From positions 558,001 through 622,000 of the forward strand of contig NZ_QLTS01000001.1 in assembly GCF_003269275.1 (NCBI RefSeq): 64,000 nt of DNA, read 5' to 3'. The stretch's first letter is position 1; each line of letters starts with the position of its first letter. Positions 15,343 to 23,200 of the stretch are shown one piece after another. The notes under the pieces are model-generated. The model did not search any database. It was not told where the DNA came from and saw only the letters and a list, made by a program, of their open reading frames with translations. This DNA comes from Phascolarctobacterium faecium DSM 14760 (lineage in GTDB: Bacteria > Bacillota > Negativicutes > Acidaminococcales > Acidaminococcaceae). The translations under genes were made by a program, and so were the position numbers.

Positions 15343-16293
15343 ATGCCCAAAAATATTTCCGCAGCAACACTGATGGTTTTATTCGCCTGCATCATTTGGG
15401 GCGCACAGCCGATGTTCGTCACTTTTGTCGTCCGCGAGTTCGACCCGATCCCTCTGGTCAGTATCCGTTATTTTACAGTAGGCGTAGTGCTGCTGGCAGC
15501 GCTGGCTTACAGCGGCGAAAAACTGCTGCCACCACGCAAGGCCTGGCTGCCGCTGTTTTTGATGGGCGTCCTCAGCGTTGGCGGCAACAATGTTGCGCAA
15601 TTTACAGGCCTGCAATACTCGACCGTAGCCAACCTTACTATTATTGCCTCGCTGACGCCTGCCGTGACCGCACTCTTAAGTCTGGTGCTGCTGCATGAAC
15701 GGCTGCATAAGCTGCAATGGCTCGGTATCGCCGCCAGTATCATCGGCGCCGTTTACCTGATCAGCAAAGGTTCGCTTTCAACGATTATCAACCTGAACTT
15801 TAATTTCGGTGATATCCTGTTCTGCGTCAGTATGGTCGCCTGGGCTTTTTATACCATTCTTGTCGCGCAGGTCAGTAAATATGTATCTGCCTACAGCGCT
15901 GTAGCCTGGGCCGGGCTGCTTGGCTCGCTGACTACGGCTGCTTACAGTATCCTGACCGGGCAGTTTGCACTGCCCTATGACCTTTCCGCTTTAGCCTGGG
16001 GGTCCTATTTTTACGTTATTTTTATCGGCAGCCTGGTCGGTATGCTGTTCTGGAACAAAGGCATCCGCGTTATCGGCCCCAGTCAGGCCGCCGTGTTTAT
16101 GAATCTGATGCCGTTAGTAGGCATCATCTGCGGCATCGCCTTTCTCGACGAAAGCTTCTATACTTCTGAAGCAGTTGGCGGCGCTCTTATCATCGCCGGT
16201 GTGTATCTGACTACGCAGTACCGCCTGCTGGCCTATAAACTGGCCAGATATCTGGTCAAACGCCGGCGGCAGAAATCATTGAACGACTGTTAA
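15343..16293 (+). CDS. EamA/DMT family transporter (first of a tandem pair)
   Basis: Inner-membrane drug/metabolite transporter of 316 residues with ten predicted helices in two EamA repeats (about 8-140 and 155-295). Typical features are CIIWGAQPMF in helix 1, the ERLHKLQWLGI junction at the end of repeat one and the basic C-terminal tail. The substrate is unknown; relatives export amino acids or other metabolites. ATG with GAAGAAGG upstream. The following gene is a close paralogue, so the pair arose by tandem duplication or works as a heteromer. Confidence 0.9.
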   Translation: MPKNISAATLMVLFACIIWGAQPMFVTFVVREFDPIPLVSIRYFTVGVVLLAALAYSGEKLLPPRKAWLPLFLMGVLSVGGNNVAQFTGLQYSTVANLTIIASLTPAVTALLSLVLLHERLHKLQWLGIAASIIGAVYLISKGSLSTIINLNFNFGDILFCVSMVAWAFYTILVAQVSKYVSAYSAVAWAGLLGSLTTAAYSILTGQFALPYDLSALAWGSYFYVIFIGSLVGMLFWNKGIRVIGPSQAAVFMNLMPLVGIICGIAFLDESFYTSEAVGGALIIAGVYLTTQYRLLAYKLARYLVKRRRQKSLNDC

Positions 16294-16360
16294 GCTTTTA
16301 AGTTACGGGCAGATGCCCGGCACTTTATAAATCATCATCGAAAGGTCTGTCAGCACTGCA

Positions 16361-17308
16361 ATGCAAACGAACAAGCTTACCGCCTCGGCACTTTTGATCT
16401 GCACTTGTATCATCTGGGGCATTCAACCGATGTTCGCCAAATTCGTCGTCAGGGAAATGTCACCCATACCTATGGTCAGCATTCGCTACACTATTGTAGC
16501 CCTGACGCTGTTTGCTATGCTTGCCTGGCGCGGCGAAAAGCTGCTGCCGCCACGCAGGACCTGGCCGGCCTTATTTACCATGGGCATCCTCGGCGTCTGC
16601 ATCAATAACGTTACCCAATTTACCGGGCTGCAATATTCGACAGTCACCAACTTTACCATTATCGCCACACTCACGCCCATCGTGACGGCTCTGCTCAGCT
16701 TTGTGCTGATCCATGAACGTCTGCACCGCCTGCAATGGCTCGGCATCTGCAGCAGCCTGTGCGGCGCGCTGTACCTGCTCAGCAACGGTTCGCTTGCGGC
16801 CATATTGACGCTGAGCTTTAATATCGGCGACGTACTCTTTTTTACCAGTCAGGTCGCCTGGGCACTGTATTCTATCATCGTCGTGCGCATCATCGACGAT
16901 GTTTCCCCCTTTGCCATCGTCGCCTGGTCGGGTCTGTTAGGTTCGCTTACCACGGCAGCCGGCGCTGCTTATTTTGGTCATTTCGAACTTCCCTCGCTGC
17001 TTTCACCGCTGGCTCTTGGTTCATATCTGTTCGTCATTTTTGCCGGCGGGCTGATTGCCATGATCTTCTGGAACAAAGGTACCGGCATCGTCGGTCCCAG
17101 TCAGGCAGCCGTATTTATGAATATCATGCCGCTGGTCGGCATCATCTGCGGGGTGCTGTTTCTTGACGAACAACTGCTCATCTCCCAGGCTATTGGCGGC
17201 GCACTTATCCTCGGCGGCGTCTATCTGACCACACAATACCGTACCGTCGCCTATCGACTGGCAAAATATTTTACGCGTCGCCAGCGTAAACGACAGCCAC
17301 TGCACTGA
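16361..17308 (+). CDS. EamA/DMT family transporter (second of a tandem pair)
   Basis: Paralogue of the preceding gene, 315 residues, ten predicted helices. It shares long blocks with it, for example CIIWGIQPMF, EKLLPPR, QFTGLQYSTV, IHERLHRLQWLGI and the FWNKGTGIVGPSQAAVFMN region, with differences mainly in loops. The ribosome site is weak (AAAGG about 15 bases before ATG), so translation may depend on coupling to the first gene. A plus-strand terminator follows at 17374-17406. Confidence 0.9.
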   Translation: MQTNKLTASALLICTCIIWGIQPMFAKFVVREMSPIPMVSIRYTIVALTLFAMLAWRGEKLLPPRRTWPALFTMGILGVCINNVTQFTGLQYSTVTNFTIIATLTPIVTALLSFVLIHERLHRLQWLGICSSLCGALYLLSNGSLAAILTLSFNIGDVLFFTSQVAWALYSIIVVRIIDDVSPFAIVAWSGLLGSLTTAAGAAYFGHFELPSLLSPLALGSYLFVIFAGGLIAMIFWNKGTGIVGPSQAAVFMNIMPLVGIICGVLFLDEQLLISQAIGGALILGGVYLTTQYRTVAYRLAKYFTRRQRKRQPLH

Positions 17309-18102: not shown

Positions 18103-18447
18103 AAAATATTTTAAAATTTTGCTTCGTGTACTACTGCTTACGTACGTTAGCAAGTAATACCTGTCTTTATATTCTGCCTACTGTGTTAGTATTGAGATAA
18201 ATAGTATATTAAAACTCTAAACTGAATTTACTTTGTAGATAGTACGTTAGTAGAATATACCACGATGCTGTAACGTAAATACAAAACGTTTATTTTTTAT
18301 CTTGTATCTTTTCTTGTTTATTTCCTTATTCTTTTATGAACAGGCGAAACAGCGGCGATTTTAGCGGCGATGTAGGGAAATATACTAAAATGATAGTCCA
18401 CACAAAATCATAGATAATAATGTCAAAAAAATTTATAAAATTTCCCA

Positions 18448-18603
18448 TTATCTAATTAAAGTTTTTGCTTCATAAAATCTGTCAACCATTTCACTATTTA
18501 GTACTTCATTTACTATTTTTCTAACCTTATTTTTCTTGATTATAACATTATTCTTGCCTATTTGTATGTTTTTTATATTTAGGCATAATTTGAGGCTTTG
18601 CAT
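18448..18603 (-). CDS. Possible small protein overlapping the endonuclease 3' end
   Basis: An open frame of 51 codons begins at ATG 18603, inside the 3' end of the endonuclease gene in another frame, and runs 100 bases past its stop. The product would be a basic peptide with IKKNKVRKIVNEVLNSEM in the middle and YEAKTLIR at the end. Residue composition looks coding-like, but there is no clear ribosome site and AT-rich DNA easily gives such frames. It could also be the remnant of an alternative, longer endonuclease C terminus. Confidence 0.25.
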   Translation of the reverse strand: MQSLKLCLNIKNIQIGKNNVIIKKNKVRKIVNEVLNSEMVDRFYEAKTLIR

Positions 18604-20338
18604 AGTCTCTAATAACTTTATAATCTCTAATAGACACTACATTCTGTGAATAGTCAACAAAATCTACTATGTCCCATGGAAAAATCTCGACATTATTTGT
18701 TTGTCTAATAAGCGCTACCTGATCTCCAACATCTCTTGAAATATTTGATGCTATAAACAGACAAAACCATTCATTGTATCCATTTTTATCTTTAAAGTCT
18801 TTATTCGCTGTAGTTAAAACATGGTTTCTAATTGATGGCAATTCATGCTCAACTTGAAAACTACGAGTTTTTGAAATAGTCGGTTCCATAATTGCATGAA
18901 TAGTATCTTCAAAGACATCAATATCAGCACCAATTTGATTATTTTTCCCTCCTGAAGCAGTGTTAAATGGAATCCCTTGATCATCGGCTTTATAATTAGC
19001 TATTACCTTTAATTTTGGAAGAGCTTTCTTGATAACTATAGCAGATAGAAATTCTAGCCTTACAGTTTCTTTCACATATTTCAAAATAAAATGTGATGAC
19101 GGTCGATTCTCAACGCTATTTATCATTTCATTTTTTAAAAATTCCCAGTCATTTTCTACCGCCCATTTTTCAATCGCTCTTTCCTTTGCATCTTTAGCAT
19201 CTTGAGTTTCAACAGCTACTTGACTAAAAAAAAGCACTTTATCCATAGCTCCCATAAATTCAAAATACTTATCGACATTATCGCAAAAATTAACGTTTGA
19301 ACTATAATTTGTAAGAACATGATTAATCTTTTCTTGCTCGTTTTTATTTATATCAATAAACCGCCCAGCTCCTCGAAGGGAAATAAGCATTGTAAGCCGT
19401 AATTTACGTATAATTTCATCTGGTGTCTCACCCATAACCTTGTCAAATTTATAATCATTTTTCTTTGATAAGATAAAGGATTTGCTAGCAGGAACTAAAC
19501 TATTGTTAGAAGTAGAAGAATCCATTAAATTCATGGCATATTCATATACTAATTCATTTGAAGTATTGTATCCAAATTTTTGACGGAAAACATAAATATA
19601 CTCAGCTAATGTTTCATAATCATTATCACCCCACATAATTATGAATGGTAAATCCTGTTTCGCTATTCCAGGTCTATTATATTTCTCATCTAAGTATTTT
19701 ATTACATTTAGTACAAGTGGAAAAAAATTTACTTTAATAGTGTTTTTTCGATAAGGATTATTGATTTGATATTTCGCAAATGCGTTTAAAAATGCAGACT
19801 GTTCAAACCTTTCATCAAAAGACTCTCCTTTGGGGTATCCATTAACATAATCAGTAATCATTAGCTTACCATTAGAAGAAATTTTCACCTTTTCTCCCTT
19901 CACTACTCTAACAAGGCCTAACTCATTTAAAAAGTTAAATTGTGTATGAATCCTAGATTCCCATCCTCCATTCCAACCTTTATCTTTATGAGCCGTAATC
20001 GTATTTTTCAACAAATAAACTATCTTATCTAGCTCAATTTCTCCAGGCTCACCATCTACCCATTCTTTATAATATTTATCAACTTTTTTGCTAGCATCAG
20101 ACGATTGATCAGCAGCTAAAAAAGAAAATTTATCATTGTAATATTTCACGTAATTGCCTAATGTATTTTTAGTTGGGATAAAAATTTTCTGCCGAATTAT
20201 CTCACCTTCTAATTCTAAGGCTACTTGATCATCAATTGTTTTTCCTTCAAATTTACTCAATACAGAAATAAACTGTGGAATCCTACTTGGATTACGCAGA
20301 GTCGTATCAAAAGAAATAGGTTTTCTCCTTTTTGCCAT
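18548..20338 (-). CDS. AlwI-like type II restriction endonuclease
   Basis: Protein of 596 residues that I assign to the AlwI family of type IIS endonucleases. A helical N-terminal half (about 1-330) is probably the target-recognition region. The C-terminal part holds a PD-(D/E)XK-like arrangement: ADIDVFED (about 480), then MEPTISKTRSFQVEHELPSI with candidate catalytic or structural acids, then a hydrophobic strand before the end. AlwI itself recognises the asymmetric site GGATC and cuts beside it; whether this enzyme shares that site is not known. ATG at 20338 follows GAGGTG at good spacing. It directly follows two adenine methyltransferase genes on the same strand. GC content is clearly below the flanks. 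Confidence 0.75.
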   Translation of the reverse strand: MAKRRKPISFDTTLRNPSRIPQFISVLSKFEGKTIDDQVALELEGEIIRQKIFIPTKNTLGNYVKYYNDKFSFLAADQSSDASKKVDKYYKEWVDGEPGEIELDKIVYLLKNTITAHKDKGWNGGWESRIHTQFNFLNELGLVRVVKGEKVKISSNGKLMITDYVNGYPKGESFDERFEQSAFLNAFAKYQINNPYRKNTIKVNFFPLVLNVIKYLDEKYNRPGIAKQDLPFIIMWGDNDYETLAEYIYVFRQKFGYNTSNELVYEYAMNLMDSSTSNNSLVPASKSFILSKKNDYKFDKVMGETPDEIIRKLRLTMLISLRGAGRFIDINKNEQEKINHVLTNYSSNVNFCDNVDKYFEFMGAMDKVLFFSQVAVETQDAKDAKERAIEKWAVENDWEFLKNEMINSVENRPSSHFILKYVKETVRLEFLSAIVIKKALPKLKVIANYKADDQGIPFNTASGGKNNQIGADIDVFEDTIHAIMEPTISKTRSFQVEHELPSIRNHVLTTANKDFKDKNGYNEWFCLFIASNISRDVGDQVALIRQTNNVEIFPWDIVDFVDYSQNVVSIRDYKVIRDYAKPQIMPKYKKHTNRQE

Positions 20339-20347
20339 ATTCACACC

Positions 20348-21319
20348 TCAATTATAATAATTGGTTACATATATTTCTTTACTGTCTTTTTTTATAGTAT
20401 TATCAAATCTTGAGATATAATTACTTTCAATTTTGTATTCTCTATAATTTTTTGACCATTCAAATAAAATATCATTCTGTTTTCCCTTGTGAGATAACAT
20501 ATTAGACAGTCCCCACTTTATTCCTTTCCGGTCTAGTCTATCTAACACGCTATATAGACGTCGTTCATCTTTTTCACTCCAAAGCTTATTATAGTCGCTG
20601 AAAGTAATAAGATATGGTGGATCAAAATATAGAAAATCATTTGAAGTTAATTCAATAGATTCAACAAATTTTTCAAAGTCCATTCCTGATGATAAAGTTA
20701 CCTCATTGTTGTTATACCATGACGAATAATTTTTCAGTGCCGCAGTAACATTTTTATTCCAATCAACATTACCAACTGGCAAATTAAACTTTCCTTGCCT
20801 ATTGAATCGAATCATATGATTAAAACCATAAACCAGCAGCAAATATAGAAAATCAATATTTGACTGATCTTTGTTATAATCATTTCTAAGTCTCAAATAT
20901 GCATCTTTATTATAATTTGAAAAATATGTTTTAATATATATTTTTTTTAGTTCTTCTATTTCAGTAGTCGTACCTTTTTCAGAAAGACTTAGTCCATATT
21001 TTTTAATCAAGTTATACATTTTTTCAATAAAGTAATCAATATCTTTTGAAGCGATTTGAAGATGCTCATGCAACTCAATTATTTTCTCATCCACATCATT
21101 CATCACAATTTTTTTTGCATTAACATTAATTGACGCGCTCCCTCCACCACAAAAAACATCATAATACGTATCAATGTCGTTAGGAAATAGCTTTTTTAGT
21201 TGAGGCATTAGCTTGTATTTATCACCAACATAAAACAAAGGAGATCGTATTGATTTCTTTTTTTTCTTTTGTGACTCAACATCATATACCTCAGCAACAA
21301 ATAATACAGGTTGCATCAT
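20348..21319 (-). CDS. DNA adenine methyltransferase, D12/Dam class
   Basis: N6-adenine methyltransferase of 323 residues that would protect one strand of the target site. Motif I is DVFCGGGSASIN (about 57-68), preceded by the YVGDKYKLMPQL segment that binds the methyl donor, and motif IV is YFDPPYLI (about 233-240, DPPY form). The order and spacing fit the Dam-like alpha class. The ATG overlaps the stop of the upstream methyltransferase (ATGA), so the two are translationally coupled. The endonuclease begins about 10 bases after its stop. Confidence 0.9.
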   Translation of the reverse strand: MMQPVLFVAEVYDVESQKKKKKSIRSPLFYVGDKYKLMPQLKKLFPNDIDTYYDVFCGGGSASINVNAKKIVMNDVDEKIIELHEHLQIASKDIDYFIEKMYNLIKKYGLSLSEKGTTTEIEELKKIYIKTYFSNYNKDAYLRLRNDYNKDQSNIDFLYLLLVYGFNHMIRFNRQGKFNLPVGNVDWNKNVTAALKNYSSWYNNNEVTLSSGMDFEKFVESIELTSNDFLYFDPPYLITFSDYNKLWSEKDERRLYSVLDRLDRKGIKWGLSNMLSHKGKQNDILFEWSKNYREYKIESNYISRFDNTIKKDSKEIYVTNYYN

Positions 21320-22566
21320 TTTCCTACCTCTGTAATAAAAACGAATTCTTTGTGATCTTTGAGATTAGTTTTTCCAGCATTAAAAAACTGAAATGAGCGT
21401 TCAAAACTTTGAGTACTTCCTACATTATTTAGTGACTTAATAATTTCCTCATGTGTAATTTTGTTTTTTGAACTGCTACTCTTTGGTTTGTATGTATTAT
21501 TATAAGTAACAACTATGTATCTTACATTCAAGTTCTTAATCAAATCGTCAAATATCATTGGAGCATTAGTTTTTGAATACTCACTCATATTTTCAACTGG
21601 TGGTTTCATAGCAACACCCTCTAATTTAGGTTTATCCCACTTTACAATTCCTTCTAAAACATGATAAAAACGCGAATACTGTCTAGAGTTGTATGGTGGA
21701 TCAACAAAAGCTACATCTGCTGATACTTTACGTACAAGTACATTTGCGTCGTCTCTAAATATCTTAATATCTTTTCCAGACACAACTAACGGATTAATAA
21801 GTTCAAAAATAAATCTATCACTAATATCCACTTTTTTTCTATAAGCATCATAATGTCCAACTGTGTTTGCAATTTTATCGGACGAATATATAAGCGAAGC
21901 AATCAAAATTGACCGCTCACGTTCATTTAAGTCATCTGAATTCTCAATTCGAGTTCTAATCTCACCAATAATTCTTGCATCATATTCGCTGAAAAACTTA
22001 CCACCGAAATTTTCAACAAAATAATCATCATCCATTGAATTTGTACATATTTTTTGGAAATTTCGTTGATAGTTTAATACTTTATCTTCATCATATTTTT
22101 GCATTCCAAAAAAAGCTTTAAAAATTATGTTGTTTGAATATAGAAAGTCATTTATAATAAACTTTCTATACTTTGGCAACATCGCTTTAGAAACTACACC
22201 AGTTCCTGCAAATACATCAAAAAATGAATCGCCCTGGGTATATTCGTCCATCAAACCAGAAATCCAGTTCATCAATTTGCTTTTATTACCAATATAACGG
22301 CGGTTTTCGAGATTATATCGCCCACAAAGATTAGAAAAAACAACATTATATTTATCTTTCAATCTAGTTTCCAAATCTTCGAGTTCTTTCATTACTGCGA
22401 ATCTACTTTTTCCTACAGACTTTGCAATAGCATCAAAATATTCAATATTCCACTTATCTATATCACGTTTATTCATCCTTCTAACTGTCGTTTCAGGAAT
22501 ACCTGAAATCAAATGAACTTTCCTAATATTAGTATTATTTTGCTTCAAGTACGTTTCTAATATCAT
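21316..22566 (-). CDS. DNA adenine methyltransferase with N-terminal DNA-binding-like extension
   Basis: Second adenine methyltransferase, 416 residues, first gene of the restriction-modification operon. Residues 1-70 read like a small helix-turn-helix unit (SGIPETTVRRMN), absent from the neighbour. The catalytic part starts at RYIGNKSKLMNWI (about 90), with motif I DVFAGTGVVSKAM and motif IV VDPPYNSRQYSRFYH. Two methyltransferases for one endonuclease fit a non-palindromic target in which each strand needs its own enzyme. The start is placed at ATG 22566, behind GAGGTG, rather than three codons upstream at GTG. A TATAAT hexamer lies about 20 bases before the ribosome site. Confidence 0.88.
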   Translation of the reverse strand: MILETYLKQNNTNIRKVHLISGIPETTVRRMNKRDIDKWNIEYFDAIAKSVGKSRFAVMKELEDLETRLKDKYNVVFSNLCGRYNLENRRYIGNKSKLMNWISGLMDEYTQGDSFFDVFAGTGVVSKAMLPKYRKFIINDFLYSNNIIFKAFFGMQKYDEDKVLNYQRNFQKICTNSMDDDYFVENFGGKFFSEYDARIIGEIRTRIENSDDLNERERSILIASLIYSSDKIANTVGHYDAYRKKVDISDRFIFELINPLVVSGKDIKIFRDDANVLVRKVSADVAFVDPPYNSRQYSRFYHVLEGIVKWDKPKLEGVAMKPPVENMSEYSKTNAPMIFDDLIKNLNVRYIVVTYNNTYKPKSSSSKNKITHEEIIKSLNNVGSTQSFERSFQFFNAGKTNLKDHKEFVFITEVGK

Positions 22567-23131
22567 CTCTTTCACCTCGTATTTTAATATTATAACATAT
22601 ATTTACCATCTTAATTAATAAAAATCGGCGTATTTGATGGATGATTTTAAACTCACTATGATGATGCAACCATTTATACATCTTTATCAATCATCTAATT
22701 CGAATCTATTTTTGTATGATATATGATCGTTATTATGTAGTATCTATATTAACATATCGTCTTAGCAACTAACTTTATAATACATTTTAAGCTGGGAATA
22801 TCTTTTCCTAAATCCTTTATTCATTTGATTTCATTCACCTGCATATTTCTATACTGTTTCAATTATATATAATCTCCAATCTCACTGACACCCTATACTA
22901 ACATACTTCTCTGTATTTTCCTATATTATTGTTATATCTCGTAAATACTATACAAATGCTTCTGTATTATAATTTCTTTCAACCATATTTTTCAACTTAT
23001 TATATTAATTTTCTCTACTATAAACAAGATCCTATCTCATGATAAGCAACACTACTTTTCCAACGTCTGAGCTTTTTTATTATCTTGTTAAGTTTTAAAA
23101 CAAAATTTATTTATATTGTTGACTAAAAAAG
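22567..23131. other. AT-rich gap right of the restriction-modification genes
   Basis: About 560 bases without a supported gene. Between 22801 and 23040 the plus strand has about 50 C and only about 10 G, so the minus strand is purine-loaded as in the neighbouring minus-strand genes. One minus-strand frame reads fairly well but contains five stops, so a decayed gene is possible. The promoter of the methyltransferase operon lies at the left end. Confidence 0.5.
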
Positions 23132-23159: not shown

Positions 23160-23200
23160 AGGCATTATAATAAATTTAAAGTTTTTGAGGGGATGCACTT

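What the first reader, a model, noticed from the sequence alone, without database searches (positions are those of the whole stretch)
18448..22566. AlwI-like restriction-modification island with two adenine methyltransferases
Seen: three minus-strand genes, AT-rich against a GC-richer background, tightly packed with an ATGA overlap between the methyltransferases. Known: type IIS enzymes with asymmetric sites need a separate methyltransferase activity per strand. Inferred: an acquired defence island; the specificity is open, with GGATC or a related site as first guess.
Basis: partly seen in the sequence, partly recalled or inferred. Interest (0 to 1): 0.5.

Follow-up and report, generated by a model that had tools for sequence, protein, structure and literature searches.

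The report
Self-regulating AlwI-family restriction-modification operon
Three adjoining bacterial genes form a horizontally acquired DNA-cutting defence system whose first protective enzyme carries a built-in repressor-like domain of the kind found in an anti-CRISPR protein, so the system probably controls its own expression.

Summary
The finding is real. Three minus-strand genes (M1, M2, R; 18548-22566) form a complete AlwI-family Type IIS restriction-modification operon, 28-31% GC in a 44% GC window. Its nearest named relatives lie on Lactococcus and Enterococcus plasmids (M1 72%, R 76% identity). R has a C-terminal PD-(D/E)XK-like domain resembling BspD6I; M1 and M2 are D12-class adenine methyltransferases. 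(1) M1 starts with a ~70-residue helix-turn-helix that matches the N-terminal domain of the anti-CRISPR AcrIIA1 by sequence and predicted fold. (2) The 7 distinct loci found with this HTH (5 lineages) all have an inverted CATC...GATG pair at -72 to -77 from the M1 start; in 4 of 5 lineages it is CCATC-N23-25-GATGG, at the promoter. The 10 related operons without this HTH that I checked lack it. I read it as the operator of an autoregulating methyltransferase. The arms also suggest the system's own target, CCATC/GATGG. Specificity and regulation are inferred, not shown. New variant of a known kind.

The parts
18548..20338 (-). R: AlwI-family Type IIS restriction endonuclease, 596 aa; C-terminal PD-(D/E)XK-like nuclease domain about residues 398-585 (conserved GADIDV...EPT, an E-x-T variant)
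   Evidence: Pfam PF09491 E 1.3e-26; PADLOC REase_II PDLC03507 E 8.5e-98; VIA-align to R.BspD6I small subunit 2p14 Z 13.2, rmsd 3.2, 160 aligned, and to N.BspD6I 2ewf Z 14.0, rmsd 12.7, 262 aligned; low-confidence model, pLDDT 47.7
20348..21319 (-). M2: Dam-like D12-class N6-adenine methyltransferase, 323 aa; recognition loop GFNHMIRFN...LPVGNVDW
   Evidence: Pfam PF02086 E 2.8e-31; TIGR00571 dam above its cut-off; T4 Dam-like chain 1yfj E 6.9e-48; alignment
21316..22566 (-). M1: D12-class N6-adenine methyltransferase, 416 aa, with an N-terminal HTH; DPPY motif at residues 289-292
   Evidence: Pfam PF02086 E 7.6e-31; PADLOC MTase_II PDLC03373 E 1.3e-125; alignments
22357..22566 (-). [quoted passage not shown]
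   Evidence: phmmer to 5y69_A E 9.5e-4; VIA-align to 5y6a_A (titled AcrIIA1) Z 9.1, rmsd 2.0, 68 aligned, 24% identity
22606..22640 (-). Inverted repeat CCATC-N25-GATGG at -74 from the M1 start: proposed operator, and two possible copies of the system's own target site
22589..22594 (-). TATAAT, proposed -10 of the operon promoter, 11 bases downstream of GATGG; a weak -35 (TAATTA or TTAATT) lies just upstream of GATGG
   Evidence: sequence; compared with relatives by eye; not among the promoter-like sites listed by the consensus scan

Best explanation
It is a horizontally acquired AlwI-family Type IIS restriction-modification operon, M1-M2-R. R cuts unmodified DNA near a short asymmetric site; M1 and M2 each methylate adenine on one strand of it. 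Most likely target: CCATC/GATGG (M2 on CCATC, M1 on GATGG), not GGATC. M1 is bifunctional: its AcrIIA1-like HTH binds the inverted CCATC...GATGG pair over the operon promoter and represses transcription once enough methyltransferase has built up. After entry into a naive cell M1 and M2 would be made first and strongly, and the whole operon then damped. Shown by computation: the three genes, families, order, foreign origin, HTH match, and the conservation of the promoter pair together with the HTH. Inferred: repression, target sequence, strand assignment, timing.
For: Complete operon with intact genes and matching relatives. Nuclease fold. HTH matches AcrIIA1 by sequence and predicted fold; AcrIIA1's own HTH regulates its operon, and the related Aca repressors have inverted repeats in the core promoter (PMC9410906, passages). 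Promoter pair: CATC-N12..30-GATG at -72 to -77 in 7 of 7 distinct loci with this HTH and 0 of 10 related operons without it; the strict pair CCATC-N22..26-GATGG occurs 10 times in 412,983 bases scanned, all 10 in these promoters, copies included, and in none of six further AlwI-family loci, L177-L182. Best shared 5-mer inverted pair in 5 of 6 upstream regions, reached by 0 of 2000 shuffles; without the near-copy L008, 4 of 5, reached by 0 of 2000. M2 recognition loop: M and NV in all 8 aligned members of our clade, Q and KR in all 5 presumed GCATC-type relatives, M and KR in T4 Dam. A Geobacillus plasmid system with fused methyltransferase keeps the Dam-type K (ILKWAGGK) that M2 replaces by F. 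Related systems recognise CATC/GATG-containing sites: GCATC/GATGC (PMC9799307, PMC10030836; passages). CCATC/GATGG is a known paired m6A motif (PMC10164179, passage).
Against: No methylation, cleavage, binding or expression data. No sequence of a characterised CCATC enzyme, or of any enzyme of measured specificity in this nuclease family, could be compared. The HTH operons are related by descent, so the promoter counts are not independent (5 lineages). Macrococcoides promoters (L010, L184) keep CATC...GATG but with 17 rather than 23-25 bases between CCATC and GATG. Arms 23-25 bases apart are wide for one HTH dimer. Operons of the same methyltransferase clade without the HTH lack the element (0 of 5), which favours an operator and weakens the step from arms to target sequence. 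The consensus scan finds no more promoter-like sites here than shuffles do and does not list this one. Both models have low overall confidence (pLDDT 47.7 and 51.7), and Z 9.1 for a small helical domain is not decisive alone.
Confidence: 0.5

Rival explanations
1. Ordinary AlwI-type system with target GGATC/GATCC; the promoter pair is an operator that has nothing to do with the target.
For: Pfam family name RE_AlwI; M2 keeps the Dam-type F-N-x-M-x-R...P loop that goes with an ATC core (role of the loop recalled). The HTH-less relatives of the same clade lack the pair, as expected if it is only an operator.
Against: The two residues I recall as reading the first G in Dam enzymes are replaced (EcoDam K9 by F, T4 Dam R130 by V; alignments). 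Published GGATC systems have one fused methyltransferase (PMC3526280, passage). A fused AlwI-family system on a Geobacillus plasmid, specificity not known to me, has its Dam-like half first with the K kept, and a nuclease that scores best with another PADLOC model, PDLC03463. M1 has no Dam-like M-x-R loop, although both strands of GGATC hold an ATC core.
Confidence: 0.12
2. Target is GCATC/GATGC (SfaNI type), as in several AlwI-family systems with two methyltransferase activities.
For: GCATC/GATGC is the measured motif of two AlwI-family systems (PMC9799307, PMC10030836; passages) and of an SfaNI-like methyltransferase in mycoplasmas (PMC9465063, passage). M1 is 39-43% identical to the N half of the fused relatives on Enterococcus and S. 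aureus plasmids.
Against: M1 lies in a different, fully supported half of the tree (100/100) from the presumed GCATC-type enzymes. M2 carries M and NV where all 5 of those carry Q and KR. R scores best with PADLOC model PDLC03507, the presumed GCATC-type nucleases L051-L053 with PDLC03557. That those relatives recognise GCATC is itself presumed from architecture and host.
Confidence: 0.15
3. The promoter pair acts only as methylation sites: M1/M2 methylation of the promoter tunes transcription, and the HTH does something else, such as help target search or dimerisation.
For: Methylation of the recognition site in the promoter is a known control in some systems (PMC3874152, passage). Three of five presumed GCATC-type operons (L051, L053, L054) have GATGC 9-18 bases upstream of the first start codon.
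Against: The pair follows the HTH rather than the methyltransferase clade: 0 of 5 HTH-less operons of the clade have it. The recognition-helix stretch (P-x-T/S-T/S-x-R) is conserved along with it in 6 of 6 aligned M1.
Confidence: 0.15
4. A silent island: genes intact but not expressed or not active in this host.
For: Strong GC difference and a foreign plasmid-type relationship. R runs about 8 residues past the end of its closest relatives.
Against: Three full-length ORFs with SD-like sites before M1 and R, catalytic motifs kept, promoter element kept.
Confidence: 0.08

Closest known systems
AlwI-family two-methyltransferase operons on plasmids of Lactococcus lactis NZ_CP065734 and Enterococcus faecalis NZ_CP102068 (L009, L008)
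   Same: Same gene order, same HTH on M1, same promoter pair; M1 72%, R 75-76% protein identity
   Different: Plasmid-borne and near IS6 elements; I found no characterisation of them in the searches made
GCATC/GATGC (SfaNI-type) AlwI-family systems: Caldicellulosiruptor Cal02329, S. xylosus TMW 2.1324
   Same: AlwI-family nuclease with adenine methylation of both strands (PMC9799307, PMC10030836; passages)
   Different: Their sequences were not compared here. Presumed members on plasmids (L051-L055) have a different M2 recognition loop, fused methyltransferases in 3 of 5 (L051, L052, L055), and in the two scanned a different N-terminal HTH (HTH_17 in L051, weak MerR_1 in L053)
GGATC systems AlwI, EacI, GmeI
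   Same: AlwI-family nuclease; adenine methylation of both strands (PMC3526280, passage)
   Different: One fused methyltransferase; target GGATC
R.BspD6I (nickase N.BspD6I and small subunit)
   Same: Fold of the nuclease; the catalytic domain aligns with the small subunit over 160 residues
   Different: Here one nuclease gene, no separate small-subunit gene seen beside it
AcrIIA1 (anti-CRISPR)
   Same: N-terminal HTH of about 70 residues at the start of a two-domain protein encoded in an operon it may repress
   Different: Here fused to a DNA methyltransferase; nothing suggests Cas9 inhibition
Methyltransferases that repress themselves through an N-terminal HTH (for example Ecl18kI)
   Same: Modification enzyme as its own repressor at an operator over its promoter (PMC3874152, passage)
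   Different: m5C and palindromic target (recall) against m6A and probably asymmetric target here; other HTH type

Membership tests
AlwI-family Type IIS restriction endonuclease (PF09491) | Match to RE_AlwI above the curated cut-off | tested here: met
   94 bits against cut-off 23.1, E 1.3e-26
AlwI-family Type IIS restriction endonuclease (PF09491) | PD-(D/E)XK nuclease domain at the C terminus | tested here: met
   2p14 Z 13.2, rmsd 3.2, 160 aligned, residues 398-585; conserved D...ExT; low-confidence model
AlwI-family Type IIS restriction endonuclease (PF09491) | Cleavage outside an asymmetric site | not testable with these tools
   needs purified enzyme
GGATC-specific AlwI-type system | Two methyltransferase domains fused in one protein | tested here: not met
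   M1 and M2 are separate ORFs; fusion reported for the GGATC systems in PMC3526280
GGATC-specific AlwI-type system | m6A in GGATC and GATCC | tested here: inconclusive
   recognition residues of M2 argue against it; no methylation data
GCATC-specific (SfaNI-type) system | Groups with GCATC-type methyltransferases and nuclease | tested here: inconclusive
   other side of a 100/100 branch, other PADLOC nuclease model, different M2 loop; but the specificity of the reference rows is itself presumed
D12-class N6-adenine methyltransferases | PF02086 above cut-off with DPPY motif | tested here: met
AcrIIA1-type HTH | Sequence and fold match to the AcrIIA1 N-terminal domain | tested here: met
   E 9.5e-4; 5y6a Z 9.1, rmsd 2.0, 68 aligned
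HTH-methyltransferase autorepressors | Repression of its own promoter | not testable with these tools
   conserved inverted pair in the promoter found, binding untested

The most novel reading that the evidence does not exclude
The operator arms are themselves the target sites of the system. M1 is methyltransferase and autorepressor in one, its anti-CRISPR-type HTH reading the CCATC...GATGG pair, and methylation of the pair by M1/M2 changes how well the HTH binds. The promoter then senses directly whether the cell's DNA is already protected and times the switch from modification to restriction.
Probability: 0.22. Interest if true: 0.7.

Novelty: new variant of a known kind. Interest (0 to 1): 0.45.

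Why it matters
Two-methyltransferase Type IIS systems must finish protecting both strands before the nuclease appears, and how they time this is little known to me. A repressor domain of anti-CRISPR type fused to an adenine methyltransferase, with an inverted pair over the promoter that may also be the system's own target, gives a compact and testable control circuit. It also gives a specific, checkable target (CCATC/GATGG) for a clade found on plasmids of Lactococcus, Enterococcus, Staphylococcus and Macrococcoides, some beside resistance genes.

Tried and rejected
Frameshift at the 3' end of R: suspected because the finding starts at 18448; rejected, homology to the closest relatives runs to residue ~590 and R ends about 8 residues after them.

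BspD6I-like heterodimer: no small-subunit gene beside R in the ORF list (ORFs of 80 aa or more); R alone carries the catalytic domain.

Phage carriage: R has no match among 50,697 phage records; M1 has 12 distant ones. A scan of viral contigs with M1 gave 4 pattern matches and no relative.

Only the conservation upstream of M1 carries weight.

Ends of the island: no tRNA in the window; no convincing terminal repeats (a 21-base pair, 18447-18467 and 23167-23187, 81% alike in AT-rich sequence, is weak). Empty site: DUF2939-family homologues in 14 fetched loci of family genomes had none of the other six flanking genes tested within their short flanks, so no empty site could be shown.

More members: searches of 398 phylum genomes with M1 (19 matched) and with PF09491 (7 matched), of the one genome in the family of G340 and of 25 genomes in the order of G240 gave no further AcrIIA1-HTH methyltransferase operon. 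One match, L034, covers only residues 2-77 (31%, E 7.6e-4) and was not resolved. A Geobacillus plasmid hit that aligned from residue 3 of M1 lies in the middle of a fused methyltransferase and is not an N-terminal HTH match.

Promoter counts leave out AlwI-family loci whose operon head is not within the fetched stretch or was not determined (L005, L017, L018, L056, L177-L182, L190); L005, L017, L018, L056 and L177-L182 were scanned for the strict pair and had none, L190 was not scanned. In one search the upstream region of L003 was missed by a failed search; one search holds the correct one. For L012 the head used is M2, its first gene of the three. In the tree L054 is labelled as without HTH, but a small ORF just before its M1 reads like an HTH.

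Structure: both models have low confidence, probably because the alignments hold 4 rows.

Full report
What is there. On the minus strand lie M1 (21316-22566), M2 (20348-21319) and R (18548-20338), with an ATGA overlap between M1 and M2 and SD-like sites before M1 and R. The genes have 28-31% GC; the window has 44.3%. R matches Pfam RE_AlwI (E 1.3e-26); M1 and M2 match MethyltransfD12 (E 7.6e-31 and 2.8e-31). The finding's coordinates are right except that R stops at 18548, not 18448; homology to its closest relatives runs to residue ~590, about 8 residues before the stop, so truncation is unlikely.

Acquisition. R has its best named relatives on plasmids of Enterococcus faecalis and Lactococcus lactis (75-76% identity; 19 of 72,556 plasmid records match at all) and on a 5-kb contig of a MAG labelled Apibacter (77%). 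The phage collection has none. Within the host's family 2 of 59 genomes carry PF09491, the window's own and one whose nuclease scores best with another PADLOC model. M1 and M2 are the only two PF02086 matches in the own genome. Together with the GC difference this supports acquisition from elsewhere. No mobile element or empty site was shown.

Enzymes. The R model is weak (pLDDT 47.7), yet its best PDB matches are N.BspD6I and the small subunit of R.BspD6I. The latter aligns with residues 398-585 at Z 13.2, rmsd 3.2, 160 residues. Conserved GADIDV...EPT fits an E-x-T variant of PD-(D/E)XK. M2 is close to 1yfj, which I take to be T4 Dam (E 6.9e-48), and keeps its F-N/S-x-M-x-R...P loop, but has F for EcoDam K9 and V for T4 Dam R130. 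That these two residues read the first G of GATC, and the residue numbers, are my recall of the Dam structures. In the aligned loop our clade carries M and NV (8 of 8 rows), the five relatives presumed to be of GCATC type Q and KR (5 of 5). As a further comparison, a fused methyltransferase beside an AlwI-family nuclease on a Geobacillus plasmid keeps the Dam-type K; its specificity is not known to me.

The HTH on M1. Residues 1-70 match 5y69 by phmmer (E 9.5e-4; the listing does not name it) and 5y6a, titled AcrIIA1, in the predicted fold (Z 9.1, rmsd 2.0, 68 aligned, 24% identity); 5y6a is also the second phmmer hit (E 1.3e-3). The M1 model is weak overall (51.7), but blocks of its first 70 residues lie at 59-77 except one at 44. 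The tool warns that Z below about 13 can mean little for helical bundles; the sequence match to the same protein is why I accept it. Pfam gives no family above cut-off for this stretch.

The promoter pair. Upstream of M1 lies CCATC-N25-GATGG (22606-22640) followed after 11 bases by TATAAT. Among the 200 bases upstream of the operon heads, CATC-N12..30-GATG occurs in all 7 distinct loci whose M1 has this HTH (window, L002, L008, L009, L010, L011, L184) at -72 to -77, and in 0 of 10 other AlwI-family operons (L003, L004, L012, L013, L014, L051-L055). By my arithmetic an even deal would give this split once in 19,448; the loci are related, so this overstates the case. Three further records (L185-L187) are copies and were not counted as distinct. 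The strict pair is present in 5 of the 7 (4 of 5 lineages). In the 412,983 bases scanned it occurs 10 times, every time in such a promoter, copies included (loci L057-L182 were left out of that scan, of which L177-L182 were scanned later and had none). A test over all 5-mers found it as the best shared inverted pair in 5 of 6 regions; no shuffle of 2000 reached 5, one reached 4. Without the near-copy L008 it is 4 of 5, and no shuffle of 2000 reached 4. Against this: the Macrococcoides loci have 17 bases between CCATC and GATG, and the consensus promoter scan (24 sites, shuffles 31.2 on average) does not list this promoter, whose -35 is weak.

Which site. Specificities of AlwI-family systems in papers that I read in passages are GGATC with a fused methyltransferase (PMC3526280), GCATC/GATGC (PMC9799307, PMC10030836) and GASTC or GAGTC (listed in PMC9799307). 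A GCATC/GATGC motif was also linked to an SfaNI-like methyltransferase in mycoplasmas, there without a cognate nuclease (PMC9465063). That BccI cuts CCATC(4/5), with the same offset as AlwI, is recalled. Our arms are CCATC, M2 has lost the Dam G-readers, and the presumed GCATC-type systems, with a CATC/GATG core, are the nearest other group of methyltransferases in the tree. I therefore put CCATC/GATGG first, at about one half, with GCATC and GGATC behind.

How it probably works. On entry the operon is unrepressed. M1 and M2 protect both strands; R, third in the operon, follows. As M1 accumulates, its HTH occupies the inverted pair across the promoter and damps the operon. This is the logic known for modification enzymes with an N-terminal HTH (PMC3874152, passage) and for AcrIIA1 and Aca repressors, the latter with inverted repeats in the core promoter (PMC9410906, passages). 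That the pair follows the HTH and not the methyltransferase clade (0 of 5 HTH-less members) favours an operator. That its arms look like the target leaves open that methylation tunes binding, which is the novel case.

Place among known systems. M1 sequences form two fully supported halves, ours (12 rows, among them L017, a RadC fusion) and the presumed GCATC type (6 rows). In the tree the AcrIIA1-like HTH needs 2 changes; one origin is not ruled out. The other half has its own N-terminal HTH in some members (HTH_17 in L051, weak MerR_1 in L053). So N-terminal regulators were apparently joined to these methyltransferases more than once. I file the system as a new variant: the enzymes are of known kinds, and the fusion with this HTH and the conserved promoter pair were not in the titles or abstract starts of the searches made.

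Noticed in passing
   Followed up: partly
L051 3923, L053 1790, L054 3798 (positions of the start codons): Three of five presumed GCATC-type operons have GATGC 9-18 bases upstream of the first start codon, in a shared GATGCCTAAATG-like leader: possibly their own target site at the ribosome-binding site.
   Followed up: partly
L010, L184 and L011: Relatives of this operon lie on staphylococcal and Macrococcoides plasmids near drug or biocide resistance genes (mecB and bla; qacA/qacR) as annotated in the records.
   Followed up: no
L015 5001-5168 (Lactococcus garvieae pLG728-optrA): A lone fragment matching only about 56 residues near the end of R beside a recombinase gene: probably a remnant of a lost copy.
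   Followed up: no
L014 4105-4962 (Apilactobacillus kunkeei OX335156): The gene annotated as an IS1595 transposase lies in the M2 position and its protein aligns with M2: probably a mis-annotation.
   Followed up: partly
L185 (S. epidermidis NZ_CP069956): A second plasmid record of the same strain carries the same MobA/L-M1-M2 stretch as NZ_CP069955; both records are linear, so this may be an assembly duplication.
   Followed up: no
L011 (S. epidermidis NZ_CP069955): Its M1 is 60% identical to the window's and has the same HTH and promoter pair, but its R is only 32% identical: nuclease and methyltransferases have diverged at different rates or been exchanged.
   Followed up: no
window 15343-17308: Two adjacent related EamA-like transporter genes look like a tandem duplication (judged by eye from the ORF translations).
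   Followed up: no
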